Source: a virus. Taken from it: DNA of 29,375 bases. Shown in pieces: positions 15,938 to 28,568 of the stretch. How positions within the stretch are numbered: position 1 is the stretch's first letter; each line of letters opens with the position of its first letter. The notes under the pieces are model-generated. The model worked only from the letters and a program-made list of their open reading frames with translations. It was not told the origin of the DNA and made no database searches. Both the position numbers and the translations under genes were made by a program. Location of the stretch: the IMG/VR virus record IMGVR_UViG_3300017987_000273, positions 1 to 29,375 of that record, one strand, 5' to 3'.

Positions 15938-16546
15938 TTACAGCAGTTTTGAGAACAGCGCGCTGAATTCCTCACGCGCCGAAATGCCGTTCTGTCCGCC
16001 ACGTCCCGCGAGGGGATTCGGTGCCGGCCGGCGTGGCTCGCCAACCTGCTGTGAGACATACTGGGCGAGAGCGGTTTTCAGTTCCGCTACCTGCTCAGTG
16101 ATCTCATCCTCGCTGGTTCCCGTAACCAGGCCCATTGCGAATTCGGGGACACCTTCGGATAGCTTGTACCGCAGCAGCTTCGCTTCGGCCTCAGCCTTTG
16201 CGGCTTCGACTTCCTCGATGCGGCGGGCAGCTTCGGCCGACGCCTCGGCCTTGATCTCGTCGGGCGTTTTGTTCTGCTCCTGACGTTGCTGTTCGCGTTC
16301 GTAGGCTGCGCGGAACTTCTCGTAGTCGGCGTCGAATGCCTTCGCCTTCTCAGCGTTGGCCTTCGCCCGGGACTCGTTGGCCCGTGCAGTCTTCTTCCAC
16401 TTGTCGCGCTCAGCGAGCAGATCCTCGTAGGCAGGACTGTCGCCGTTGTCGGCTTGATCCTGGGCCTGCGACTCGACATCGCTGCCGGCGCTGGCGCCGG
16501 GCATGTTCAGCGGCGTCGGGCCGACTGTGGCGTCTTGATCGGACAT
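15938..16546 (-). CDS. Capsid scaffolding protein, 202 aa
   Basis: ATG 16546 is preceded by AGGGAG (16555-16560), eight bases away. The protein has a disordered acidic N-terminus (residues 1-40), then a long charged coiled coil rich in Ala, Glu, Lys and Arg (about 40-135: for example KWKKTARANESRAKANAEKA, RRIEEVEAAKAEAEAKLLRY), and a C-terminal segment with NGISAREEFSALFSKLL that should dock to the capsid subunit. This architecture and the position directly before the major capsid gene are diagnostic for scaffolds of the DUF4355-like type. It would direct procapsid assembly and then leave. Confidence 0.92.
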   Translation of the reverse strand: MSDQDATVGPTPLNMPGASAGSDVESQAQDQADNGDSPAYEDLLAERDKWKKTARANESRAKANAEKAKAFDADYEKFRAAYEREQQRQEQNKTPDEIKAEASAEAARRIEEVEAAKAEAEAKLLRYKLSEGVPEFAMGLVTGTSEDEITEQVAELKTALAQYVSQQVGEPRRPAPNPLAGRGGQNGISAREEFSALFSKLL

Positions 16547-16601
16547 GGTTGTAACTCCCTTGCGTTACGCATCTGGAGGTGGCACCCGTTTCGGGGCGCA
16601 A

Positions 16602-16619
16602 CCCGCCACGGTTGGCGGG
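16602..16619 (-). other. Hairpin in the capsid operon leader
   Basis: cccgcca (16602-16608) and tggcggg (16613-16619) form a perfect 7-bp stem with a 4-base loop in the 160-bp gap (16547-16706) between scaffold and plus-strand cassette. No U-tract follows on either strand, so terminator function is doubtful. I found no convincing minus-strand promoter in this gap; capsid genes may depend on read-through from upstream. Confidence 0.4.
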
Positions 16620-16639
16620 AAGAATGTGGGGATCCGGTA

Positions 16640-16668
16640 TTGACCAGATGGTGTAGCCCGGTCTACAG
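16640..16668 (+). promoter_or_regulatory. Promoter of the plus-strand cassette
   Basis: TTGACC (16640-16645) and TACAGT (16663-16668) are separated by exactly 17 bases. Both are close to the consensus for housekeeping sigma factors. The predicted start near 16675 gives a leader of about 30 bases before the ATG at 16707. This is the best-looking promoter in the window. Confidence 0.75.
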
Positions 16669-16706
16669 TCGGGTCATCAGTTGATCGACAGACAGGAAAT
16701 CGAAAG

Positions 16707-16931
16707 ATGTACACACTGACCATCAGCCCGGTGGGCGATCCGAAGGGCACCACCAGGACCGCGCATGCAGATCGGCTGGATGCCGCGAAGGCGCTGATCC
16801 TGAAGGCTCGCACCTACAAGATCAACACCTCGAACACCACGGCCGACACTGTTAGTGGCACGCTGACCTCGCCGTCCGGCCCTCGCGGTGTCCAGCGGGC
16901 CGCGTATGTGTGGGTTATCCGCCCCGCCTGA
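16707..16931 (+). CDS. Hypothetical small protein of moron-like cassette, 74 aa
   Basis: This gene is on the strand opposite to the structural genes, with its own promoter (16640-16668) and intrinsic terminator (16946-16973). It begins MYTLTISPVGDPKGTTRTAH and has a helix around residues 24-36 (LDAAKALILKARTY), flanked by β strands ending AAYVWVIRPA. I do not recognise the family. The α/β pattern with a β-strand at each end might be a small RNA/DNA- or protein-binding fold, but no residue proves it. An upstream aggaaa at 16694-16699 could serve as a weak ribosome-binding site. Confidence 0.7.
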   Translation: MYTLTISPVGDPKGTTRTAHADRLDAAKALILKARTYKINTSNTTADTVSGTLTSPSGPRGVQRAAYVWVIRPA

Positions 16932-16945
16932 TCGGCCCTCTGAAG

Positions 16946-16973
16946 CGCCCCAGCCAATCGGCTGGGGCGTTTT
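16946..16973 (+). terminator. Intrinsic terminator after first cassette gene
   Basis: A perfect 10-bp GC-rich stem (cgccccagcc / ggctggggcg) with loop aatc is followed by TTTT on the plus strand. On the minus strand no U-tract follows, so it stops plus-strand transcription only. Confidence 0.88.
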
Positions 16974-17008
16974 CGCATGTAGATGCCTATGGTGCCCAGC
17001 ATGTGGAG

Positions 17009-17027
17009 CGGTCTACAATCGAGGCAT
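17009..17027 (+). promoter_or_regulatory. Second promoter-like element, probably for a leaderless mRNA
   Basis: This 19-base element matches 16659-16677 at 16 of 19 positions (both cggtctaca-tcg). It contains TACAAT at 17013-17018, ending seven bases before the ATG at 17026. A start site at the usual distance would fall on or beside the A of the ATG. The −35 region is weak. The shared sequence could instead be an operator; promoter function is inferred. Confidence 0.55.
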
Positions 17028-17313
17028 GAGCGAAACACAGAGCACCTTCACCCTCGACTTCACTGACAAGACATGGAACGCCGTCAGCTTCGGGAAGCCA
17101 TGGAACGGCTGGGCCACACCCGTGGTCACCCTCGAAACCTTCGAGGACATCGTCGCGTGGGCGGCGGACACCATGACGGTCAACTTCCACACCAATGGCA
17201 CGGCCATGATCGAGGAACCCTTCGGTAAGGAAACGATCTACTTCGAGATCACACCCGACGCCAACGGCAACTACGATCTAAGCCAACTGGGCTGGACATT
17301 CGAGACGGCCTAA
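17026..17313 (+). CDS. Hypothetical small protein of moron-like cassette, 95 aa
   Basis: Start ATG 17026 is chosen because the promoter-like TACAAT lies only seven bases upstream; a longer frame from 16888 would cross the terminator. The protein is acidic and aromatic: MSETQSTFTLDFTDKTWNAV, FGKPWNGWATPVVTLETFED, then DTMTVNFHTNGTAMIEEPFG and a late YDLSQLGWTFETA. The layout is β-rich with one helix (FEDIVAWAADTM). I do not recognise the family. It has no membrane segment, signal peptide or metal motif. It lies between an upstream terminator and a third cassette gene, consistent with an accessory lysogeny-expressed gene, but this is inference. Confidence 0.78.
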   Translation: MSETQSTFTLDFTDKTWNAVSFGKPWNGWATPVVTLETFEDIVAWAADTMTVNFHTNGTAMIEEPFGKETIYFEITPDANGNYDLSQLGWTFETA

Positions 17314-17356
17314 ACCGAACACCAACAGCAACAGCAACCCGAAAGAGAGAAACACA

Positions 17357-17614
17357 ATGAACGTCAACCCGAAGTTCGAAATCGGACAGCTTGTCTACCA
17401 CCTCGGGGAGGGCATCCGCGAGCCGCGCCCCGTCACCGTGGTGGGCCACACCATCGAGGGCCACCCGCTCTACATCGAGGGCCACGCCGCAGTGATGGTC
17501 ACCACCGCAGGCAACCTCGCCGTCCGCGAGGATATCCCGAACCACCCGCTGACCAAGCGCCGCGAACGGATCCTCGCAGACGGTCGCTGGCCCGACGGCG
17601 TCCTCAATAAGTAG
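17357..17614 (+). CDS. Hypothetical small protein of moron-like cassette, 85 aa
   Basis: It follows the previous cassette gene by 43 bases with a purine-rich site (gaaagagaga) before ATG 17357, and no separate promoter, so it is probably co-transcribed. The sequence is MNVNPKFEIGQLVYHLGEGI then PRPVTVVGHTIEGHPLYIEG and a basic end (HPLTKRRERILADGRWPDG). The start (F-x-I-G-Q-L-V-Y) and the repeated short strands suggest a small β-barrel of SH3 or KOW type, which is a guess from pattern. A strong terminator lies immediately downstream at 17633-17660. Function unknown. Confidence 0.75.
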   Translation: MNVNPKFEIGQLVYHLGEGIREPRPVTVVGHTIEGHPLYIEGHAAVMVTTAGNLAVREDIPNHPLTKRRERILADGRWPDGVLNK

Positions 17615-17632
17615 GGCGCAAACCGCCACACA

Positions 17633-17660
17633 GCGCCCCGGCCACCGGCCGGGGCGCTTT
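17633..17660 (+). terminator. Intrinsic terminator closing the cassette
   Basis: A perfect 11-bp stem (gcgccccggcc / ggccggggcgc) with loop acc is followed by TTT on the plus strand. It lies between convergent genes ending at 17614 (+) and 17662 (−). No U-tract follows on the minus strand, so it probably acts mainly on the cassette transcript. Confidence 0.85.
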
Positions 17661-17661
17661 C

Positions 17662-17958
17662 CTATGCGCCCCTACCCTTTCGGCCGTCCACGGGGCGCAC
17701 AGACGGGCGCAGCGCACGTTCCCGCTCAGCCAGCAGCCTCGCCCTCGCATTAGCTCCCGACAACTGGCCCTCAAGGGCATCCCGGGCACGCTGCAACGCC
17801 AGATCACTCGACGGGTCAGCACTCAACACCCACAGCGCCTGCTCGACCTCGTCATCGAACCCGACGCCAGTCGGCGGCGGGCCACCGCGCTGCGCCTCAG
17901 ACAGCGCCACCTCAAACCGGCGGCGCACCTCAGCATCAGTCGGCGGACGCCTAAGCAC
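17662..17958 (-). CDS. Hypothetical helical protein, 98 aa
   Basis: GTG start at 17958 overlaps the stop of the upstream gene by eight bases. The product is mostly helical and highly charged (RPPTDAEVRRRFEVALSEAQ; DDEVEQALWVLSADPSSDLA; RARLLAERERALRPSV) and ends basic. It is the last gene of the run that begins with terminase, converging on the plus-strand cassette. I do not recognise the family. It could be a virion-associated or accessory protein, but nothing in it proves that. Confidence 0.75.
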   Translation of the reverse strand: MLRRPPTDAEVRRRFEVALSEAQRGGPPPTGVGFDDEVEQALWVLSADPSSDLALQRARDALEGQLSGANARARLLAERERALRPSVRPVDGRKGRGA

Positions 17959-18217
17959 TCGACACCTCCACGCCGTAGGCGCGGCGGATCTCGTTCATCA
18001 CCTTGCCCACCCGATCCCCCGGGATCCGCTCCCAGTCGCCGGTCCCCAACACGTCAGCCTGCACAGTGTCAGACCTCTTCCAAGTGTTCGTCACAACCTG
18101 CCACCGCTCAGCCGACGCGGCGTAAAACTCAGCCGTCGAGGCACTCTCGTCCACCCGCACACGCGCCAGCCCGGTGGCCGGACCACCGCAGCCATCACTG
18201 AAATACCGGAACGTCAT
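17951..18217 (-). CDS. Hypothetical protein, 88 aa
   Basis: ATG 18217 is chosen because it follows the preceding stop by seven bases with a GGTGG site. A frame extension upstream (to 18430) reads as shadow of the previous gene. The protein begins MTFRYFSDGCGGPATGLARV, then SASTAEFYAASAERWQVVTN and a C-terminal helix VGKVMNEIRRAYGVEVSS. It appears α/β with no recognised motif. Its stop is overlapped by the next start, so the small genes are translationally linked. Confidence 0.7.
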   Translation of the reverse strand: MTFRYFSDGCGGPATGLARVRVDESASTAEFYAASAERWQVVTNTWKRSDTVQADVLGTGDWERIPGDRVGKVMNEIRRAYGVEVSSA

Positions 18218-18224
18218 ACCACCA

Positions 18225-18464
18225 TCATAGATTATCGTCCGCCACCACGGGAGTGACGCCATCATCGCCGTACTGCCTGAAGTCAGGGTTGCGCTCATAC
18301 CCGCCATCAGCCCACCACCCGACAGTCTCCAACCGGCCGGTGTCATCCCGAAGCACCGTGATACGCCCTGGCCGATCCAGCCGCCGGATCGCGTCGAGGC
18401 TGTCATACACCTCGACCCGCTCGCCGTCATTGAACTCGACGAACACCCGCATCCCGTGAACCAT
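18225..18464 (-). CDS. Hypothetical β-rich protein, 79 aa
   Basis: The chosen ATG at 18464 overlaps the stop of the large MuF gene as TGATG. A start at 18494 is possible but lies inside the MuF gene. The sequence MVHGMRVFVEFNDGERVEVY, then IRRLDRPGRITVLRDD and GWWADGGYERNPDFR, reads as alternating β strands. I do not recognise it. Its coupling to the MuF effector gene makes an immunity or chaperone role conceivable, but the sequence gives no evidence for that. Confidence 0.68.
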   Translation of the reverse strand: MVHGMRVFVEFNDGERVEVYDSLDAIRRLDRPGRITVLRDDTGRLETVGWWADGGYERNPDFRQYGDDGVTPVVADDNL

Positions 18465-21400
18465 CAGAACGAGCTCTGCCTCGACGCGCCCCACGTCCCC
18501 GCCTGAATGTGCTTCGCCAGCAGATCCTCATAGCCGTTAGCCCGGGCCAGTTCCCTCGACGCCGGATCCAGTTCGCGGATAATCGGCAGCGCCCGCCGGG
18601 TAGCCTCAGCGAACTCCTGATAGATCTGGTTCTTCTCATCCTGATTAGCGTTAGGCACACCCTTGGGCATCACGCCGTCGAGGACACGCCGCGCCTCGCC
18701 CAGATCGTTGCGGATCCCCAGCTTGATGCGGGCATCCCAAGTGTCGACCGTGACGGCCCACGCATCCTCTTCATCGAGGACGTTCAGCGCATGGTTGTAG
18801 ATCTTGCCAGCCTCAAGTGCAGCTTGATCTTTCGGCCCGCGCTGCACCATCAGGAACAGTTCCTCTAACTGTTGTCCTGGGGCGCCGGCGTCGGCTCGAG
18901 CGCCTGCCGATACTTCGTCAACGCCAGTTGCGCTTCGGCTTTCAGCGTTTCGCTCGACTTCCCTTCGGTGCCGATTATGAAGATCGGACGCCTTACCGGC
19001 TGGTTCGTAGGTTCCATCAGACAATTCCTCACCAATCGGAACAACATCGAGTGTCTTCAGATCATACACAGCCAACTGGTCGACATCCTGAGCCGCCTTG
19101 ATCGTCGCAGCCGAAGGCTTCCCAACCTTCGACACATCGAGGAACACGTTGTCGCCCTCGACCCACAGACCCAGATGGCACCCGGGCCGGTTCAACTGAT
19201 CCCAGTGCGCGTCGATGAAGTGGTCGACATCCTCAGGCTTGAACACAGCCTTCGGGATCCGCGTCTCAGTGCCCTTCGACGGGGCGAACGCATACCCGTC
19301 GACCGGCGAGCCACCGGCCAGGTCAATCGTGATGCCGCCGTTCGACTTAACAGCCTCATACACCCTCGCCTCGTACCGCTCCCGTAGCCGCGCCATAGAC
19401 TCGTTATGCTTCCGCGCCTCAGGGATCGCACGCGGCTGCACAATCCAACTAGGGTCGATGTCGCCAGTCTGCAACGCGAAGTGCTTCTCCCCGCCCGGGA
19501 ACTCGTCATCCACCCGTCCGGCAATGCCGTGAAACACGCCGTCATCATCGATACCCGGCGTCCACTCCTGCTTCTTCGGCTGCCACTTCGAACGCGGAAC
19601 GTCCACCGCCACAACACCGTTGCCGTAGCCCAGCGCCGCACCGTCGAGCCGGTCAGACAGGAACACGTCGCCCTGCTCCCTCGACAGGAACCGCCGGTCA
19701 ACCCGAATCGAATCGGCCGACTCGAGCGAGGTCCGGTGATACATGCGAACCCTGTTCCGGGCAGGCTGCGGATAGAACAGATCGTCGGCGTCCTTACCGC
19801 GCAGCGCCCACACCGGATCACTCACAACCCACTTGCCATCGTCATCGACAGCGAGCAGACGCTTCACCCGCTCAAGATTGTCGGGGATCACACCATTCAG
19901 GAACGGCCGCGGGCCGAACTCGTCAGTCGGGATATGCTGACCCGGCTTCGGCTTCGGCACAAGCCGCGCAACATCTTTCGGATCCATCGCCAAGACCTGG
20001 CGCACCGCAGCATAATTCACGTCGAAGTCCGTTCGAGGTGACAGCGCAGCGTAGATCGAGGCAGCCCTGCGGATATCCCCCTCATACACGGTGCCCAGCG
20101 AATCCTCAGCGAGGAACCACCGCAACCGCTTGTACCACAGGATCCCCCACTCTTTCTCCTCCGGTGTCAGCCGCTGCCACGCCGCCATATCGTCCGACAC
20201 CACATTGCGGACCATCAGATCGAGGGGAGGATGGATAGCCCCAGCGGGCTTCGCCCCATACGGCAGATGGACCGAACCGTCAGCCTCATGGATGATCGGC
20301 ACAGTCGGCCCACGATGCCGGGTAGTGGTCGCCTTAAACCACACCTCAGTGTCCTTGCCCTTCCGAATCACCGGAGTGCCCTTAGTGATTGGGATCGTGT
20401 CCCACAGCCGCTGCTGCTGCTCCCGAAGTTCCACCTTCCGCGCCTCAGGCGTGCTCGGCAGACGTTCCTCTTCGTACAGCTTGTGGCACACATCCTTCAC
20501 CGACATCGACTTCTCAGTGTGGATCTGTAGCTCGAACTCCAAGCCGTTCAGTTCGAACGTCATGTTCCGGCCGCGATACCCCTCGAACGCGATACCGGCA
20601 GGCTGTTTCTTCGGCACCGCACCCAAGGCGATCAACTGATCACGAATATCGTTGCCAGACTTCCAATATCCCTCGGCCGGCACCACCGCCGTGAAACGAA
20701 CCGTGTCCCGCATCTTGTCGAGGGCCGCTTCAGCGCCGATCCCCTTCTCCACCATCTCGTCCTGCACCTTGCGGTACAGCGACGGCGGATCCTTCAGCCG
20801 ATACTCCAAGCCGTGCGGAGTGGCACCGGCATCAACCATCGTTTGATACACAGTGGCGGAAATACCCGGCTCGACGTTCTCAGCGAGATCCTTATACCGG
20901 CTGTCCACGATGCGGCGAACCTCAGCCCGCTGTTTCGCCGTCAACCTTTTATCGTCGACCTTCGCGTACTGTTCTTCGGTCCACTCGACGTTCTTCAGCG
21001 GCGGCAGACCCTGCTCCTGCCACGTCGAGGTCGACTCGTCAACCTTGAACCTACGCTGCCCACGCGCCCGCACGTCGACAAACTCGACGACGCCTTTATC
21101 GTCCCGCGTGATCACGCCGTCATAGCCGTCGGCCCGCAGCTTCACAGACAGTTCCTGCCCAGTCGCGCCGCCGTACTGCGCCGACAGTTTCTCCTTCCAC
21201 GCCCCACCGTTGTGGTCGACGTACAGCGGCCGATCCAACGTGGCGGTCCCCCGCTCCCACCCCTTCGACGGCAGCGGAGTGTCCACGTCAGCCGGTGACA
21301 TGTAACGCCCCCACGGCTCACTGTCCTGGCCGAACCCGGTCACCCCACGCATCCCCGTGTTGTTACGGAGATAAGGGATCTCAACCCTCGTCGACTGCTC

Positions 21401-23317
21401 GACCGTCGAGGCACCCTTCGTTGCACCCGGCAGCGCCTTCGTCATGTCCGCCGGCCGGGTGCCCGCGCTACGATGCTCCCAATACCGCAGCGCGGCAGGC
21501 GCTTCACCATCCTTCGGCCTGAAGTCAGGCCAGTCGAAGAATTCAGGGCCGCCGTTATTGAGATCCCTGCGCGTGTACGGGCTATCACCCTCGTAGTAGT
21601 CGACCAACACCCGGTGCAACACCTTCGACGATTCGTGCGCGTAGTTGCCGTTGATCTCCACGTCAGCGAAAGCCTCAGCGATAGCCTCACTGCCCTTCAC
21701 CATGGCGCCGCCGCTGCTGCCGTCGAACGAGTAGCCGGACAGGTTATCCCGCTTCCACTCGTCGAACTCGTAGTACTGCTGCGGCGTCCACTGCCCGCCC
21801 TGATCTTTCCACTTCTTCGCACCGACACGCGTTTTCGCATAGTAGTCGGCCAGGGCCTGCTCAACCCGATCCCCCGCATTGTCCGAACCGGCGGGTGTAT
21901 TCAGCTTCACCAGATACCCGGGCGCCGTCGGATCCCCCATCGCTGCGCGGGGATGGTTCGTCAGGCCGTGCCCAAGTTCATGCATCATCACCGCGTAGGA
22001 CGAAGGCTGAGACACCTCACCACTGCCGCCATCGTTTCGGTAGTGGAACCCGCTGTTGACGCTGTCCCTGAAGTCGGTGTCCATCGTCCGGCCCATCCGC
22101 AGCCCGGGGATGTTGTCACTCGCAGCATTGATGTACTTCGAGTTCATGTTGATCTTGCGGGAACCCTCATAGTTCCACAGCCGCCATGTCGCCGCGAACG
22201 TATTGTCATCATCCGAATGGAATGTGACCTGCTGCAACGTGACACCGGGATATCGGTGCTTGAAGTCGTCGACAGCGCGGATCGCCCCACGAACCTGCTC
22301 ATACACACCCGGCGTGAGATCCACCGCCGGCGGCGGGTTGTAGAACAGGGCGTTGGCGTTATTGTTGTGCTTCTTCTGGGTCATGATCACCGTGGTGTCC
22401 GAACCCAGCAGCTTCTGCGCCGCGTCCTCGAGCGCCCCGGGCGTGTCCGCAGCGTCGAGGGCCTCACGCAACTTCACCCGCTCTGGCGTCCAGTCGGCCC
22501 GGTCCCAAGCCGTAGTCATACCAAGCTCTTTCGGGACCGCCGCCTCAATCTCCCGCATCTTCGCCAACAGCGCCTTGAAGTAGGCGTTCTCGTCGGGATC
22601 ATCCTTGAACGCCGACGCCGGCGGCATCTGCTTCCGCGCTTCGATGTAACGCTTGTTGTACATCTCGTAGTACTCAGGCTCAACGAACTTCGTACCCGGG
22701 CGTTCCGGCACAGCATCGCACTTACACCAATCATGCCCAGCCAGAGCAGCTTCGGCGCTGTAATACACCGCGCCACGGGTCGCCAACGTCGCACAGAACA
22801 AGCACGCGTCCGGCTGCGCCACCCGATACAACTTCACACGCGGCTTCCCCCGCTCGTAACCCTCAGCGCGGGCGTTCACGTCGACCGTCTGCCTCGACCC
22901 GTCGAACACAGCCCGGGTAGTCGAACCCGACAGATCACTCAACAGCCGCTGCCGCCGCCCCTCATCAAACACCCCATCCGCGATATTGTTCACAGCCCAC
23001 TCGGCGCTACCGATCAACCGTGCCGCGGGAACCAGATCCCCAGTCGGCGCCGTAGGAACGTAATCCTGATCCGGTGCGAGTTCCCCGTACCACTGCGCCG
23101 TCGACTCAGCCGCAGCATCCACGAACCCGCCCACAATCTTCGGGAACATGTTCACCACCACGGCCTCAACCTCAGCCGGGGACATACCATCCCGAAGATA
23201 GCGCTTAATCATCTGCTCAATCCGGTCGACGGCCTGCTCACTCAACCGGGACAACAACTTACGCAACGAGTTAGCCTCAGCGACAAGGTCGACCTGCCGC
23301 GAAAGAGACGCAGTCAT
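18464..23317 (-). CDS. MuF-type minor capsid protein fused to multiple effector-like domains, 1617 aa
   Basis: ATG 23317 overlaps the portal stop as TGATG. Residues 1-230 match the MuF/SPP1 gp7-like head: N-terminal helices and CLFC (172-175) with HDWCKC (195-200), a likely zinc site. Residues 430-560 contain HELGH (446-450) and a later EAIAEAFAD (544-552), the layout of a zincin metallopeptidase. Residues 650-760 (GYDGVITRDD, then EFVDVRA) resemble an ADP-ribosyltransferase-like fold. Residues 838-975 resemble a RelA/SpoT synthetase (K842..S845..K849, D871xxR874, EFELQIHT, CHKLYEE). Residues 1055-1112 and 1499-1613 look like the two halves of a DUF7178-like domain. Between them lie a second ART-like region at 1188-1295 (MYHRTSLESADSI) and a GYAFAPSKGTE segment. 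MuF proteins enter the capsid, so the extra regions may be injected effectors. MuF is secure; the enzymatic calls are pattern-based. Confidence 0.85.
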   Translation of the reverse strand: MTASLSRQVDLVAEANSLRKLLSRLSEQAVDRIEQMIKRYLRDGMSPAEVEAVVVNMFPKIVGGFVDAAAESTAQWYGELAPDQDYVPTAPTGDLVPAARLIGSAEWAVNNIADGVFDEGRRQRLLSDLSGSTTRAVFDGSRQTVDVNARAEGYERGKPRVKLYRVAQPDACLFCATLATRGAVYYSAEAALAGHDWCKCDAVPERPGTKFVEPEYYEMYNKRYIEARKQMPPASAFKDDPDENAYFKALLAKMREIEAAVPKELGMTTAWDRADWTPERVKLREALDAADTPGALEDAAQKLLGSDTTVIMTQKKHNNNANALFYNPPPAVDLTPGVYEQVRGAIRAVDDFKHRYPGVTLQQVTFHSDDDNTFAATWRLWNYEGSRKINMNSKYINAASDNIPGLRMGRTMDTDFRDSVNSGFHYRNDGGSGEVSQPSSYAVMMHELGHGLTNHPRAAMGDPTAPGYLVKLNTPAGSDNAGDRVEQALADYYAKTRVGAKKWKDQGGQWTPQQYYEFDEWKRDNLSGYSFDGSSGGAMVKGSEAIAEAFADVEINGNYAHESSKVLHRVLVDYYEGDSPYTRRDLNNGGPEFFDWPDFRPKDGEAPAALRYWEHRSAGTRPADMTKALPGATKGASTVEQSTRVEIPYLRNNTGMRGVTGFGQDSEPWGRYMSPADVDTPLPSKGWERGTATLDRPLYVDHNGGAWKEKLSAQYGGATGQELSVKLRADGYDGVITRDDKGVVEFVDVRARGQRRFKVDESTSTWQEQGLPPLKNVEWTEEQYAKVDDKRLTAKQRAEVRRIVDSRYKDLAENVEPGISATVYQTMVDAGATPHGLEYRLKDPPSLYRKVQDEMVEKGIGAEAALDKMRDTVRFTAVVPAEGYWKSGNDIRDQLIALGAVPKKQPAGIAFEGYRGRNMTFELNGLEFELQIHTEKSMSVKDVCHKLYEEERLPSTPEARKVELREQQQRLWDTIPITKGTPVIRKGKDTEVWFKATTTRHRGPTVPIIHEADGSVHLPYGAKPAGAIHPPLDLMVRNVVSDDMAAWQRLTPEEKEWGILWYKRLRWFLAEDSLGTVYEGDIRRAASIYAALSPRTDFDVNYAAVRQVLAMDPKDVARLVPKPKPGQHIPTDEFGPRPFLNGVIPDNLERVKRLLAVDDDGKWVVSDPVWALRGKDADDLFYPQPARNRVRMYHRTSLESADSIRVDRRFLSREQGDVFLSDRLDGAALGYGNGVVAVDVPRSKWQPKKQEWTPGIDDDGVFHGIAGRVDDEFPGGEKHFALQTGDIDPSWIVQPRAIPEARKHNESMARLRERYEARVYEAVKSNGGITIDLAGGSPVDGYAFAPSKGTETRIPKAVFKPEDVDHFIDAHWDQLNRPGCHLGLWVEGDNVFLDVSKVGKPSAATIKAAQDVDQLAVYDLKTLDVVPIGEELSDGTYEPAGKASDLHNRHRREVERNAESRSATGVDEVSAGARADAGAPGQQLEELFLMVQRGPKDQAALEAGKIYNHALNVLDEEDAWAVTVDTWDARIKLGIRNDLGEARRVLDGVMPKGVPNANQDEKNQIYQEFAEATRRALPIIRELDPASRELARANGYEDLLAKHIQAGTWGASRQSSF

Positions 23318-24780
23318 CAGGCGTTAGCGTCCCCCTGGCCGCGCCTAGCAGCCAGCTTCGACGCATTCTCACTCACTGGCGGCGCCGAACCCAGCGACGA
23401 CACAAGCTGCGACACTGTCTGTTTCCGCAGATCCGCCTGCAACTGCTTCTGCTCAACCCGGCTGATATCCAGCCGATCCCACGTCACCGTCGACTCAGCC
23501 GGCAACACCCCAGCCTGAATCAACTTCGTGGTCGCATCTGCTGTCGCCGCCAACGTCGGCGTATGGGCCGGGCGCCACTTCGGGCGCACCAACATAGCCT
23601 CTTTCGGCAGATCCGAACTGCCCTCACGAACCATCGTCGCCAACCTGGCAAGCTGCGTCCAACCGCCACCGAACTGACGCTGCCGACGCTCCGCACGCTT
23701 CACCAACCGGAACTCCATCGCGTTAATCGCCTCAGCAGACGGCGGATTGTCAGTCGCGAAACCAAGATAATTCTGCGGGATCCCAATATGGCCCGACAAC
23801 AGTTGCGCGTACATCTTCATCATCCCGAAGAACGTCTCCAGGCCCTGCCCGCGAAACTCCTTGATATCAGGCAGATCCCCATACTCGTCCCGCTCAAGCG
23901 CCAGCATGCGCCCCATATAAGACTTCCACGCCGGAACCGGATCGCCGTTGCCATCGAGGAAGAAACTCTCCTTCGCGCCAAGAACGAACCGCTGCGGCGC
24001 AGCGTAAAACTCCCGCGCCAGTTCAGCATTCGCCAACGTCCGCAAACCAGACTGGGTCAACCGGCGCACAGTCTCAGTGATCTCAGAATGACCGCGAGGC
24101 CCACTCGACCTCGACTGATTCACAAACGCCGCAACCGCAACCTCGCCCAAACTGTGCCGGTCACGCTGAATCACAGACCAGCCCGACGGGCTACCCGCCG
24201 ACGGTGACTTGTTCTCCAACCAAATCGTCTCATTCGGCAGGAACAGCGCACCATTAACGATGCGATCCTCCACATCGAGGCGCTGCATATACGCCGCCGT
24301 CACCTTACGGGTCCGCGCATCAATCGTCGCCGTCATGTTCAACGGCGACTCCACCGTCACCAGAGGATCCGGCTCGCCCTCGAAACCAGTTGTCACAGCA
24401 GCGAACCCGACACCGTAAATCAATGCGTCGAGGTGGATCTTAATCGACTCCACATCGAGGTCATTCGCCAGGTACAACTCTTCCAGGCCGAAAGGATCAT
24501 CACCCTCGACGCCAGTCGCAGCAGTATTCCAACCCTCGAAATCGAGGCGTTCCTCCACACAGTCCACGGCGGCGGCAGGCCAGCCGACAGCGACAGCCAA
24601 ACCAGCCAACGTCGGCGGCAACGCGATACGCAGATCCTCGAGCCTCGACTTGCCGTCATAATAGTCGGCCTTAATCAGGTTCTCAGGCCGAAACCGCGCC
24701 AACTGCACAGTCAACTCGTCCAAAACCTGATGCTCATCACTGCTCAGGGACAGTGATGGAAGTGCAATGGCGACAGTCAT
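23317..24780 (-). CDS. Portal protein (SPP1 gp6-like), 487 aa
   Basis: ATG 24780 overlaps the terminase stop as ATGA. The N-terminus has short helices with DELTVQLARFRPENLIKADY and YDGKSRLEDLRIALPPTL, the opening typical of actinophage SPP1-like portals (NxxYYxG-like). The middle has WLENKSPSAGSPSGWSVIQR and SEITETVRRLTQSGLRTLAN, followed by the helix region GMMKMYAQLLSGHIGIPQNY and NPPSAEAINAMEFRLVKRAE, which is the crown/tunnel helix pattern. It forms the dodecameric ring through which DNA enters, binding terminase outside and adaptor below. Between terminase and MuF is its usual place. Length is normal for the family. Confidence 0.94.
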   Translation of the reverse strand: MTVAIALPSLSLSSDEHQVLDELTVQLARFRPENLIKADYYDGKSRLEDLRIALPPTLAGLAVAVGWPAAAVDCVEERLDFEGWNTAATGVEGDDPFGLEELYLANDLDVESIKIHLDALIYGVGFAAVTTGFEGEPDPLVTVESPLNMTATIDARTRKVTAAYMQRLDVEDRIVNGALFLPNETIWLENKSPSAGSPSGWSVIQRDRHSLGEVAVAAFVNQSRSSGPRGHSEITETVRRLTQSGLRTLANAELAREFYAAPQRFVLGAKESFFLDGNGDPVPAWKSYMGRMLALERDEYGDLPDIKEFRGQGLETFFGMMKMYAQLLSGHIGIPQNYLGFATDNPPSAEAINAMEFRLVKRAERRQRQFGGGWTQLARLATMVREGSSDLPKEAMLVRPKWRPAHTPTLAATADATTKLIQAGVLPAESTVTWDRLDISRVEQKQLQADLRKQTVSQLVSSLGSAPPVSENASKLAARRGQGDANA

Positions 24781-27700
24781 CCCAGCACCAACATCCTTCC
24801 CTTAGATGACGCATTCACACGCACACCGAAACCGCGTGCAACACAATCCAAACGGGCCTTATAAGCCATGATCGCCGCATACGCCGCGTCAATCTTCTGC
24901 GGCGACTCAGGGTAAGCCTTATAGATCAAATAACCGCGGCTCGCCGGCCGCATACGGGCATTAAGAACATGCCGCGTCAGCGGCAACGAACCATCATGCG
25001 TCACCTCAGGCTTCAACACACCCTCCGGTGTCCGCTGGCCCGACACCACAATCGCGTGCCGCAACCGCTCCACAAACTCAACCACGTTGACGCCCTTACC
25101 CTTCGGCCACGCCATCATAGGATTCGCCACCGAACACTTAACGCGCAACTTGCGGCCATGGTCCTTCTCCCACGCCGCCACATGCTCAACCCAACCAGAC
25201 GGGTCCGCATAAAACGCACCAACCCTGTACCGGCGAAACACATCATCGACAGTCGCGTCGACCTCCGCAACCGGCGGCGTCCACGTCCGGTCCCGCATGT
25301 CACCCTCCCACACGCCCAACGTGAACAGATGCCCATCATAGATCCGGCAGCCGATCAACGCCGTCGCATCAGCCTTGCCCTGGACGCGGCCCATCGAGCC
25401 ATCGAAACCGACAGTGATAGCGTCCCCCGGCGCCAACGGCCGAACCTTCAGCGGCTCAACAGGATTAAACTCCTGGCCCGGCTCAAGATACGTCGCCTTA
25501 ATCCTCGACCACTCGACCTGAGACACCCAACTATCACTGGCATGCGTCAACTGATTCAGGAAATAACGTCGAGCATCCTGCGGATCCGTATCCGCATCCC
25601 AATACTCCGCAATGATCCGGTCCAGGTTGACCCAGCCGCCATTATCGTTCGCGCTGTCACCATAGGACACCCGCAAACCAGCCCGAAGCGAATCCAGTTC
25701 CTGCGGATCAGTTTCCGCCGGCGCCTCGCGGTGATCGTACAGCAGACCACTCGACTTCGACCGGCCCTCACGCTGCGCCTCGAACGCCTTCCAACTAGCC
25801 TCAGCCACAGACTCCTCGCCCGGCAAGAACGCGTTAGGCGTCTCCACGCTGCACCCGTTCACCTTCGCAATGTTGCGGCGGATCGTGCGTGCCAGCTTCC
25901 AGCCGCCGTTCGACTCAGTCCAAGACTCAGTGTTATGTGTCATGTGGCAGCCCACGCCCGCAGCGAACAGGTGATCGTCCGACTCGACCGCGATACAGCG
26001 AACAGGGACGCGAGGCACAAGGGTGATCGACCGAATTGTGATCCATTGCGGCGAGTTACGATGCTGCCGAACACGTTTGACTTTGCGCCGCAGATTGAAC
26101 GGCACTAGCCCGCCGCGTGGCGTGAAGTCAACCCGATACTTACCGCCACCGGTGTAGCGAGCATCAGCCACCCACTTCGGATCTGAGCAGACCTGCCCCA
26201 GCGAACGTAATAGCTCAACCACCGCATAGGCAATACCCTTGTTGGTGTTTACGAATGTGCAAGTGCCGGTAGCTGTTACGCAGCCGTCAGAGTCCATCAG
26301 CCCGCGCAGCAGATCAGTTCGCTGGCGCACTGAACCCAGTAGGTAGTCCGACGGGACGTGCTTATCCTCAAAACAGTCCAGCCCACGAATTGCAACAGCT
26401 TGGGGCGGACGATTCGCCCTCGACGCCGACGAGAAACTCAAGTTACATGCCGGCGAAACACCATCCCTACGGGGATACCAACGCTGATGAGTCGGAATGC
26501 CGCGATCTGCCAGGATCGCCTGCACATCAGGCACATCTGATTCCCCAACCGATAGCTCACACTTCGCCCTAGTGCCATCCCCAAGCCAATACCCCAGCAG
26601 GTACGGGTCAACCGGGAGATCACTTTCAGGCCGCTCGAGCGGCTCACCAACCGGCACCCGGTACGAATAGCCATCCAGCATGCCCTCAGTTGTGCGTACA
26701 CACTCATATTGCTTAGGCCAATTGATACGCTTCGAGTGCCACAAGTGTCCAGCCGACGCGATCACATCAGTGCCATCAGCGAATGCAACACGGTAGCAGT
26801 CATGCTCATTGGAAACAGGTTTCGCCTCACTCACGCGCACCGGCTGCCCACTGCTGCCGTAGACGTAGTCGCCAGTCTCAATCTCCCCCATGGTTGTCCA
26901 ACCGGACGGCGTCGGGATGGGAGTGTCCAGAGCGAGGGCCTGATCCATAGCGGTGAACACCGGCCGGAACCCCTCCCGGGACAGACCAGCCGAAGTAGCC
27001 GCCTCAATCTTCCCCGACGGCACCAAGATCGCTGTCTCCATTGGGGATACGTCATAGTCATCGAGCAGCGCATCACTCGACCGCACCATGTCGAGGCACG
27101 GCTCCCAAGTGTTCGCCGTCTGATCCTCCGACACCGCAACGATCTGAACCTTCGGCTTGATACCCGTTGTCCACCATGGCTTGCCCACCGGCTGACCCTC
27201 AGCGTCCCAGCCGTCCATCACCACCGGGCCTAACGCCTCAACGATGCACAGCGCCGCGACAACGGGACTGTTGTGAGTAACCCACATCGACTCCCCGGTG
27301 AGATACAGGCCGTCCGGCGAGCTCACCGTGATGCAGCGCATAGGCGTAGCCTCGACCGGCTCAATCGACTTAATCACACGCGGCAGCGGTTTACGCTTAC
27401 GCTCAACGAGGCGCTCAGCTTTGCGCGGCAAGCGCACCACCGGCAGATCCGCATACGGCCTGAACTTCAACCGATATCGCGTGCCAACAACCCGCCCATT
27501 CAGCACCGCGTCAGACTCCCGCACAGACACCCGCATGCCCAGCGTGCGAACCAATTCGGCGACACCATCCGCCAGGGCGCGGCGCACCGTGCAAAACTCA
27601 GCGGTGCCGAACTTGTCGATGTGGCCGTCGGTGTCCATCAGACCCTGCAATAGCGCCAGCCTCTGTCCGATAGAGGCGCGGAGATACAGCGCCGGAACAT

Positions 27701-28568
27701 GCTTATCGCCAAGCAGATTCAAGCCCCGCAGAGCCTGCATGGCCCAACCTCGACCGAAGCGGACCCGCCACGCCGTCGAGGTTACTGTCGGCTCGCCATA
27801 CTCAACACCCGCTGCCTCAATCTGCGACAGCATGTGCGGTAGATCCTCTGAGCCACACGTTAACCGTGGGCAGTCGGAGTCACCATCCCCCAGCCATGCG
27901 CCCAACAGATACGGGTCGACCGGCAGATCCGCTTCGGGCAATTGCAGCACCGGCTGCTGCGGCAGAGCAAACCGCGCAACGCCCGGGTTGACGGCCTTAG
28001 TCCTACCCGCCGTCAACGGGCGAGGAAACACCAACCCTTCTTCACGCATCTCAGCGACACTCAGCGTCTTACGGACACGCATCGCCCCACCGACAAACAC
28101 GTCGACATCAAATAGATGCTCACCGTGGAACACGCTCGACGTGCCATCCGACAGGGTCACCCTATAGCCGCGATCCACAATCACCGGCTGCGCCGCAACG
28201 CAACGAATGATCTCCCCGTCAACCCCAAACAGTTCATCACCCGGCCGAATGTCGCCAACCGTTGTCCAGCCCTGCGGGGTTGGAATGCGCGCATCGAGGC
28301 GCTCTGCCTTCCCCCAGCCCTTTGGCCTCGACAGGACAGCACGCCGAATCAGCCTGCCGTTGTTGATTGTTCGCCCCTCGATGGCACGGCCATCGAACCC
28401 GGGATCCACCTCATACAACTTGAGAATGAACCGGATCTGCTCGTCAGTGAACCGCAGCGGCTCACCAACCGCAGGGCCATCGACTACCTGCAAGTAGTAC
28501 TCACACCAGTCGATGACAGCGTTGCCCAGCGTCGGCCGTTCACCGGGAACGGACGGCTTCCAACCCAT
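24777..28568 (-). CDS. terL: Terminase large subunit containing two inteins, 1263 aa
   Basis: ATG 28568 directly follows the small-subunit stop (TAG ATG). Unspliced the product is 1263 residues; removing residues 88-433 and 544-879 leaves 581, normal for a TerL. After splicing, the N-terminal ATPase has Walker A GWGKSP and a Walker B region FTAMDQTESW, then NAFLPGEESVAEASW. The C-terminal nuclease has the RNase H-like acidic residues in FDGS (D1056), FYADPSGW (D1122) and KIDAAYAA (D1227). The protein cuts concatemeric DNA and drives it into the portal. Both inteins sit in the ATPase, between K and S of Walker A and between Q and T after Walker B. Unspliced protein should be inactive. The frame is intact throughout. 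Confidence 0.95.
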   Translation of the reverse strand: MGWKPSVPGERPTLGNAVIDWCEYYLQVVDGPAVGEPLRFTDEQIRFILKLYEVDPGFDGRAIEGRTINNGRLIRRAVLSRPKGWGKAERLDARIPTPQGWTTVGDIRPGDELFGVDGEIIRCVAAQPVIVDRGYRVTLSDGTSSVFHGEHLFDVDVFVGGAMRVRKTLSVAEMREEGLVFPRPLTAGRTKAVNPGVARFALPQQPVLQLPEADLPVDPYLLGAWLGDGDSDCPRLTCGSEDLPHMLSQIEAAGVEYGEPTVTSTAWRVRFGRGWAMQALRGLNLLGDKHVPALYLRASIGQRLALLQGLMDTDGHIDKFGTAEFCTVRRALADGVAELVRTLGMRVSVRESDAVLNGRVVGTRYRLKFRPYADLPVVRLPRKAERLVERKRKPLPRVIKSIEPVEATPMRCITVSSPDGLYLTGESMWVTHNSPVVAALCIVEALGPVVMDGWDAEGQPVGKPWWTTGIKPKVQIVAVSEDQTANTWEPCLDMVRSSDALLDDYDVSPMETAILVPSGKIEAATSAGLSREGFRPVFTAMDQALALDTPIPTPSGWTTMGEIETGDYVYGSSGQPVRVSEAKPVSNEHDCYRVAFADGTDVIASAGHLWHSKRINWPKQYECVRTTEGMLDGYSYRVPVGEPLERPESDLPVDPYLLGYWLGDGTRAKCELSVGESDVPDVQAILADRGIPTHQRWYPRRDGVSPACNLSFSSASRANRPPQAVAIRGLDCFEDKHVPSDYLLGSVRQRTDLLRGLMDSDGCVTATGTCTFVNTNKGIAYAVVELLRSLGQVCSDPKWVADARYTGGGKYRVDFTPRGGLVPFNLRRKVKRVRQHRNSPQWITIRSITLVPRVPVRCIAVESDDHLFAAGVGCHMTHNTESWTESNGGWKLARTIRRNIAKVNGCSVETPNAFLPGEESVAEASWKAFEAQREGRSKSSGLLYDHREAPAETDPQELDSLRAGLRVSYGDSANDNGGWVNLDRIIAEYWDADTDPQDARRYFLNQLTHASDSWVSQVEWSRIKATYLEPGQEFNPVEPLKVRPLAPGDAITVGFDGSMGRVQGKADATALIGCRIYDGHLFTLGVWEGDMRDRTWTPPVAEVDATVDDVFRRYRVGAFYADPSGWVEHVAAWEKDHGRKLRVKCSVANPMMAWPKGKGVNVVEFVERLRHAIVVSGQRTPEGVLKPEVTHDGSLPLTRHVLNARMRPASRGYLIYKAYPESPQKIDAAYAAIMAYKARLDCVARGFGVRVNASSKGRMLVLG
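25932..26939 (-). mobile_element. Intein 2 after Walker B of TerL, class 3, LAGLIDADG type, 336 aa
   Basis: Residues 544-879 start ALALDTPIPTPSGWTTMGEI and end CHMTHN, followed by Thr880. The class 3 set is complete: Ala at position 1, Trp610 after SAGHL in block B, Cys858 in VRCIAV (F:4), and Thr877 in block G. The endonuclease helices are PYLLGYWLGDGT and LLRGLMDSDGCV. DKHVP before the second helix is also present in intein 1, so the two are related. The exteins join as MDQ-TESW. Confidence 0.93.
27270..28307 (-). mobile_element. Intein 1 in Walker A of TerL, LAGLIDADG type, 346 aa
   Basis: Residues 88-433 start AERLDARIPTPQGWTTVGDI and end MWVTHN, followed by Ser434. There is no Cys or Ser at position 1. 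Instead, block F has MRCITV with Cys412 in the F:4 place, and block G has Thr-His-Asn, the hallmarks of class 3 splicing. The block B region is FHGEHLFD, with Phe153 where class 3 inteins have Trp. The endonuclease has PYLLGAWLGDGD and LLQGLMDTDGHI, both LAGLIDADG helices with their acidic ends. The insertion site is the catalytic P-loop, a typical conserved homing target. Confidence 0.9.

What the first reader, a model, noticed from the sequence alone, without database searches (positions are those of the whole stretch)
16640..17660. Plus-strand moron-like cassette inside the structural operon
Three small unknown genes run against the whole structural operon, with a near-consensus promoter, a repeated promoter-like element and two strong plus-only terminators. 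It sits between the MuF side genes and the scaffold. Such cassettes are often expressed in the lysogen and can give the host a trait such as phage exclusion.
Basis: partly seen in the sequence, partly recalled or inferred. Interest (0 to 1): 0.6.

Follow-up and report, generated by a model that had tools for sequence, protein, structure and literature searches.

The report
Reverse-strand moron cassette in capsid operon
A probable mycobacterial phage carries three small genes, with their own promoters and terminators, pointing against its capsid-building genes at a spot where a related prophage keeps a different backwards gene known to be switched on while the virus is dormant, so this is most likely an ordinary exchangeable cargo cassette of still unknown function.

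Summary
Three real plus-strand genes (16707-16931, 17026-17313, 17357-17614) lie in an otherwise all-minus structural operon. They are the three best-coding plus ORFs among 63 of 70 aa or more, and a home-made gene finder calls only these on the plus strand. They form two stacked units: gene 1 with a 9/12 promoter and hairpin terminator, then genes 2-3 behind a second copy of the promoter element (gene 2 apparently leaderless), ending in a second hairpin. A 15/16-nt direct repeat brackets the block.

The moron reading is supported at anatomical level. The closest structural relatives, the MabR prophages of M. abscessus/M. chelonae (MCP 68-69% identical), carry an unrelated reverse gene at this site in one of five genomes, and nothing in the others. 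That gene, McProf gp56, is published as expressed, at low level, in lysogens. Proteins 1 and 2 have distant relatives elsewhere in mycobacteriophages; protein 2 also on actinobacterial plasmids. Protein 3 is an orphan.

No trait is shown. Phage exclusion is only a guess, and the test of the cassette as MuF-toxin immunity came out negative. Expression in this phage is unmeasured. Verdict: a new member of a known kind, of modest interest.

The parts
16640..16669 (+). Promoter 1: TTGACC-18-TACAGT; inferred start of transcription near 16676
   Evidence: start site inferred from the usual -10 to start distance
16652..16680 (+). Copy 1 of the repeated promoter element (TGTAGCCCGGTCTACAGTCGGGTCATCAG), near-palindromic (7 of 8 pairs)
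16707..16931 (+). Gene 1 (74 aa), SD-like AGGAAA upstream; relative of Thonko gp82 (46% identity) and PHROG 3097 (E 1e-4); function unknown
16943..16972 (+). Terminator 1: GC-rich hairpin followed by GTTTTC
17002..17030 (+). Copy 2 of the promoter element, -10 TACAAT at 17014-17019; the A of the gene 2 ATG lies 7 nt after it, so a leaderless mRNA is likely
17026..17313 (+). Gene 2 (95 aa), 'PWNGWATPVV' family found in mycobacteriophages and actinobacterial plasmids; alpha/beta model, pLDDT 80
17357..17614 (+). Gene 3 (85 aa), orphan, 43 nt after gene 2, probably the same transcript
17632..17658 (+). Terminator 2: 12-bp perfect GC hairpin, weak T tail
16594..16609 (.). Left copy of a flanking direct repeat GGGCGCAACCCGCCAC, inside the scaffold leader
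17614..17629 (.). Right copy of the flanking direct repeat (15/16 identical, 1020 nt away); 0 of 300 simulated sequences had such a repeat at 900 nt or more
15938..16546 (-). Scaffold gene, left neighbour of the site
17662..17958 (-). Small gene downstream of MuF in operon sense, right neighbour of the cassette
17951..18265 (-). Small gene directly downstream of the MuF fusion, the usual place for an immunity gene
   Evidence: PMC5576092
18464..23317 (-). MuF/VG15 multi-domain protein (1617 aa) with an Apk2-like toxin domain around residues 776-980

Best explanation
The block is a moron-type accessory cassette: two stacked, self-contained transcription units inserted, by recombination of unknown kind, between the end of the MuF-side genes and the scaffold leader, in antisense orientation. 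Host RNA polymerase with the main sigma factor would transcribe gene 1 from promoter 1 to terminator 1, and genes 2-3 from promoter 2 (leaderless start of gene 2) to terminator 2, at a time when the late structural operon is silent, most likely from the prophage. The products are three small soluble proteins from a pool that moves among actinobacterial phages and plasmids, and they probably act on the host or on competing elements. Shown: genes, promoter-like and terminator-like elements, lack of conservation at the site, a different reverse gene at the equivalent site in McProf. Taken from the literature: that McProf gene is expressed in lysogens. Inferred: expression in this phage, its timing, and any function.
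For: Coding statistics and gene calls. Promoter, repeat and terminators. Nearest relatives: MCP 68-69% in MabR prophages. McProf gp56 is reverse at the same site; FSQJ, FSIL, FSAT and FVLQ have no reverse gene there. The IMG/VR contig L013 (MCP 75%) has yet another cassette-sense ORF nearby, with a TTGACA-17-TAGCGT promoter. McProf gp56 is expressed at low level in M. chelonae lysogens (PMC8191103). Flanking 15/16 direct repeat. Gene 2 family on other phages and on plasmids; gene 1 relative in Thonko.
Against: No RNA data for this phage. Base composition matches the phage. The right flank is not homologous to MabR, so the insertion boundary is defined on the left side only. Relatives of gene 2 in DreamTeam1, Anthony and WXIN lie in runs of co-directional small genes, which could be early lytic genes. 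Promoter 2 has no clear -35. The record is one metagenomic fragment of 29 kb, and whether the phage is temperate cannot be read from it.
Confidence: 0.68

Rival explanations
1. The cassette is an early-lytic unit: small host-takeover or anti-defence proteins made just after infection, relocated into the late operon with their own promoters, not a lysogenic cargo.
For: Relatives of gene 2 (DreamTeam1 gp90, Anthony gp81, WXIN) lie in long co-directional blocks of small genes at the genome end. SigA-like promoters would also fire on entry.
Against: The equivalent reverse gene in McProf is expressed in lysogeny. The position inside the late operon with separate terminators is typical of lysogenic morons.
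Confidence: 0.2
2. The cassette encodes immunity against toxin domains of the neighbouring MuF fusion, expressed in the lysogen so that a superinfecting particle cannot poison it.
For: The MuF protein carries a domain related to the Apk2 (p)ppApp-synthetase toxins of Streptococcus and Mannheimia phages (PMC12226406), and the cassette is nearby.
Against: No similarity to IapK or Aph1. The classical immunity position is filled by two sense genes, 17951-18265 and 17662-17958. None of the 45 phage records with the Apk domain is a Mycobacterium phage, so the phages with relatives of genes 1 and 2 lack it at that sensitivity. McProf gp54 is 92% identical over its whole length to its FSIL counterpart, which has no gp56.
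Confidence: 0.08
3. The main role is transcriptional: antisense RNA or hairpins insulating the scaffold-capsid genes from upstream transcription, the proteins being incidental.
For: MabR empty sites carry an operon-sense terminator at this very place, so transcription is probably broken there in relatives.
Against: Three ORFs with clear coding signal and two with conserved relatives are not needed for that.
Confidence: 0.04

Closest known systems
McProf gp56 and its site (cluster MabR prophage of Mycobacterium chelonae, BK061309)
   Same: Small reverse-oriented gene between the MuF-side gene and the scaffold, with its own start region and a hairpin behind it; lysogenic expression published (PMC8191103)
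   Different: One gene, not three; no sequence similarity to any of the three; its promoter carries a strong GTAGANNNNTCTAC operator-like palindrome that the window copies match only imperfectly
Phage morons as defined for mycobacteriophages (PMC3029335)
   Same: ORFs flanked by promoter and terminator, inserted between genes that are neighbours in related phages
   Different: Two stacked units with a duplicated promoter element; benefit to host unknown; no compositional anomaly
Prophage defence operons of mycobacteriophages such as Sbash 30-31 (PMC6426596)
   Same: Small lysogenically expressed genes of variable content (if expressed)
   Different: No defence model matches the three proteins; they were not compared with Sbash gp30-31 directly; the site lies inside the head genes; no phenotype known
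MuF polymorphic toxin-immunity modules (PMC5576092, PMC12226406)
   Same: The neighbouring MuF fusion has an Apk2-like domain
   Different: Cassette genes are antisense, not directly downstream, and unlike IapK or Aph1

Membership tests
Moron | ORF(s) with own promoter | tested here: met
   Promoter 1 is 9/12; a second copy of the element precedes gene 2. Sequence evidence only, no transcript mapped.
Moron | Own terminator | tested here: met
   Two stable hairpins, z -3.7 and -4.7; T tail good for the first, weak for the second, and the T-tract scan called neither
Moron | Present in one genome, absent at the same site in related genomes | tested here: met
   Absent from four MabR prophages, unrelated gene in McProf and in L013; right flank not alignable
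Moron | Atypical base composition (common, not required) | tested here: not met
   61.8% GC against 61.4% for the window
Moron | Expression from the repressed prophage | not testable with these tools
   Only by analogy with McProf gp56
Moron | Dispensable for lytic growth, trait for the host | not testable with these tools
   Lack of conservation suggests dispensability; trait unknown
Prophage-encoded phage-exclusion system | Similarity to a known defence protein | tested here: not met
   No hit among 5027 PADLOC models; small new systems would be missed
MuF toxin immunity module | Sense gene directly downstream of the toxin, similar to IapK or Aph1 | tested here: not met
   Antisense, two other genes lie between, no similarity
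MabR lysogenic operator regulon (motif found here) | TTGGTAGANNNNTCTACCAA operator at the promoter | tested here: inconclusive
   The window sites are the only matches with one mismatch or fewer in the window, but a motif matrix ranks them only 7th and 15th

The most novel reading that the evidence does not exclude
The gap upstream of the scaffold leader is a dedicated cargo bay of this head-gene family, kept insulated by terminators, where unrelated lysogenically expressed genes are swapped, and whose promoters are tuned by a prophage-specific operator shared with the right-end lysogenic genes.
Probability: 0.2. Interest if true: 0.55.

Novelty: new member of a known kind. Interest (0 to 1): 0.36.

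Why it matters
If expressed in lysogens, these would be three new candidate prophage effector proteins, two of them from families that circulate among mycobacterial phages and (protein 2) plasmids, including plasmids of M. abscessus and, weakly, M. intracellulare. The comparison also ties an anecdotal published observation (McProf gp56) to a recurrent insertion site, which makes it simple to look for further cargo in prophages by position instead of by similarity.

Tried and rejected
DNA-level search for the cassette in 50,697 phage records: nothing. Single-protein scans of IMG/VR for each of the three proteins gave no true relatives; the one hit for protein 3 lies in a tape-measure gene and was rejected. 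Genus-wide search of 376 mycobacterial genomes: none for proteins 1 and 3, two for protein 2. Promoter-element search in IMG/VR: 15 matches, which look like chance. PHROG 3097 could not be located in the fetched phages. Structure of protein 3 without an alignment is worthless (pLDDT 36). Protein 2 gave a usable model (pLDDT 80) but no solved structure at E 0.001 or better, only weak SH2-like partial matches; the viral library returned what looks like its own family. Immunity-protein hypothesis tested and not supported. Operator link between the window and MabR tested by motif matrix and left unproven. Some minus calls of the home-made gene finder on short GC-rich contigs (e.g. L017, L048, L058, L089) look like frame errors and were not used.

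Full report
What was checked. The window is a 29,375-base virus record. Almost every gene runs on the minus strand, in the order terminase, portal, MuF fusion, two small genes, [cassette], scaffold, major capsid protein, tail. Three plus-strand ORFs break this at 16707-16931, 17026-17313 and 17357-17614. With codon statistics trained only on the structural genes, they rank as the three best of 63 plus-strand ORFs, and antisense alternatives in the same stretch score about zero or below. A simple gene finder with no knowledge of the finding calls exactly these three on the plus strand. So the genes are real beyond chance.

Anatomy. Promoter 1 (TTGACC-18-TACAGT, 16640-16669) drives gene 1 with a short leader and an AGGAAA ribosome site, and ends in hairpin 1 (16943-16972) followed by GTTTTC. 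A 29-nt element that includes the -10 of promoter 1 recurs at 17002-17030 (76% identical). In the second copy the ATG of gene 2 begins 7 nt after the -10, where transcription should start, so gene 2 probably has a leaderless mRNA, a common arrangement in mycobacteria (general knowledge). Gene 3 follows after 43 nt and the unit ends in hairpin 2 (17632-17658). A 16-nt direct repeat, 15/16 identical, brackets the block at 16594 and 17614; none of 300 simulated sequences of the same composition had such a repeat at 900 nt or more, and 1.3% had one at any distance of 100 nt or more. It may be a recombination scar, but it was noticed after the fact.

Comparison with relatives. The capsid protein is 68-69% identical to that of the cluster MabR prophages of M. 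abscessus and M. chelonae. All share the scaffold leader just left of the cassette. In McProf the space holds one small reverse gene, gp56. The four other MabR records have no reverse gene there, only a hairpin and an operon-sense terminator. In L013 (capsid 75% identical) another cassette-sense ORF with a good promoter lies nearby. None of these proteins resemble the three cassette proteins. More distant relatives mostly show structural-sense genes only, though gene calls on short GC-rich contigs were noisy. So the site tolerates different reverse cargo or none, and the genes are not structural parts.

Expression. Nothing is known for this phage.

Families. Protein 1 resembles Thonko gp82 (46% in the alignment) and PHROG 3097 (E 1e-4). 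Protein 2 belongs to a family with a PWNGWATPVV signature in phages DreamTeam1, Anthony and WXIN, on plasmids of Gordonia, Tsukamurella, M. abscessus and, weakly, M. intracellulare and in 2 of 376 mycobacterial genomes. Its neighbours on plasmids and phages are mostly small unknown genes. Protein 3 has no relative found here. No defence model matches.

Is it toxin immunity? The MuF fusion carries a domain related to the Apk2 (p)ppApp-synthetase toxins (PMC12226406), so the cassette was tested as its immunity module. Proteins 1-3 are unlike IapK and Aph1; the usual immunity position is occupied by two sense genes; relatives of proteins 1 and 2 occur in phages without the domain; and in MabR the reverse gene comes and goes while the MuF fusion stays 92% identical. 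This reading is unlikely.

A regulatory motif found on the way. GTAGANNNNTCTAC occurs five times exactly in McProf, more than any other of 1024 half-sites: at the gp56 start, in the gp87-gp88 gap (two exact and one near match), and twice near gp92-gp94. gp85-86 and gp91-92, in these neighbourhoods, are named as lysogenically expressed (PMC9434293). The other MabR prophages keep the right-end sites, and in FSQJ and FVLQ the divergent cluster sits directly before a helix-turn-helix gene. The two window promoters overlap imperfect copies (one mismatch each), the only such matches in the window, but a motif matrix ranks them only 7th and 15th. The link to the window is therefore not shown.

Conclusion. 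A moron-like cassette, most likely expressed from the prophage, function unknown; phage exclusion is possible but has no positive evidence. New member of a known kind.

Noticed in passing
window 24777-28568 (-): Large terminase gene interrupted by two probable inteins: aligned blocks 3-88, 433-543 and 879-1263 are contiguous in McProf, and LAGLIDADG/Hint domains match in the gene.
   Followed up: partly
window 18464-23317 (-): 1617-aa MuF/VG15 fusion with a metallopeptidase-like HELGH stretch, an Apk2-like (p)ppApp-synthetase toxin domain around residues 776-980 and DUF7178; only the first ~270 residues are shared with MabR.
   Followed up: partly
window 16547-16622 (-): Scaffold mRNA leader with three small hairpins conserved in the window, L013 and five MabR prophages, some pairs changed on both sides; no Rfam match.
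   Followed up: partly
L004, L144, L145, L147-L150: Operator-like palindrome TTGGTAGANNNNTCTACCAA at promoters of lysogenically expressed genes in MabR prophages, often in clusters 24-26 bp apart, next to a helix-turn-helix gene in some.
   Followed up: partly
L004 15037-15219 (-): McProf gp56 is annotated as 46 aa from GTG; an in-frame ATG directly after the palindrome gives 60 aa and a leaderless start, the same layout as FSAT gp89 and FVLQ gp91.
   Followed up: partly
L009-L012, between MuF-side gene and scaffold: Strong operon-sense terminator (GGCCCCTAAC...GTTAGGGGCCTTTTT) upstream of the scaffold leader, so scaffold and capsid genes probably need their own promoter or antitermination.
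   Followed up: no
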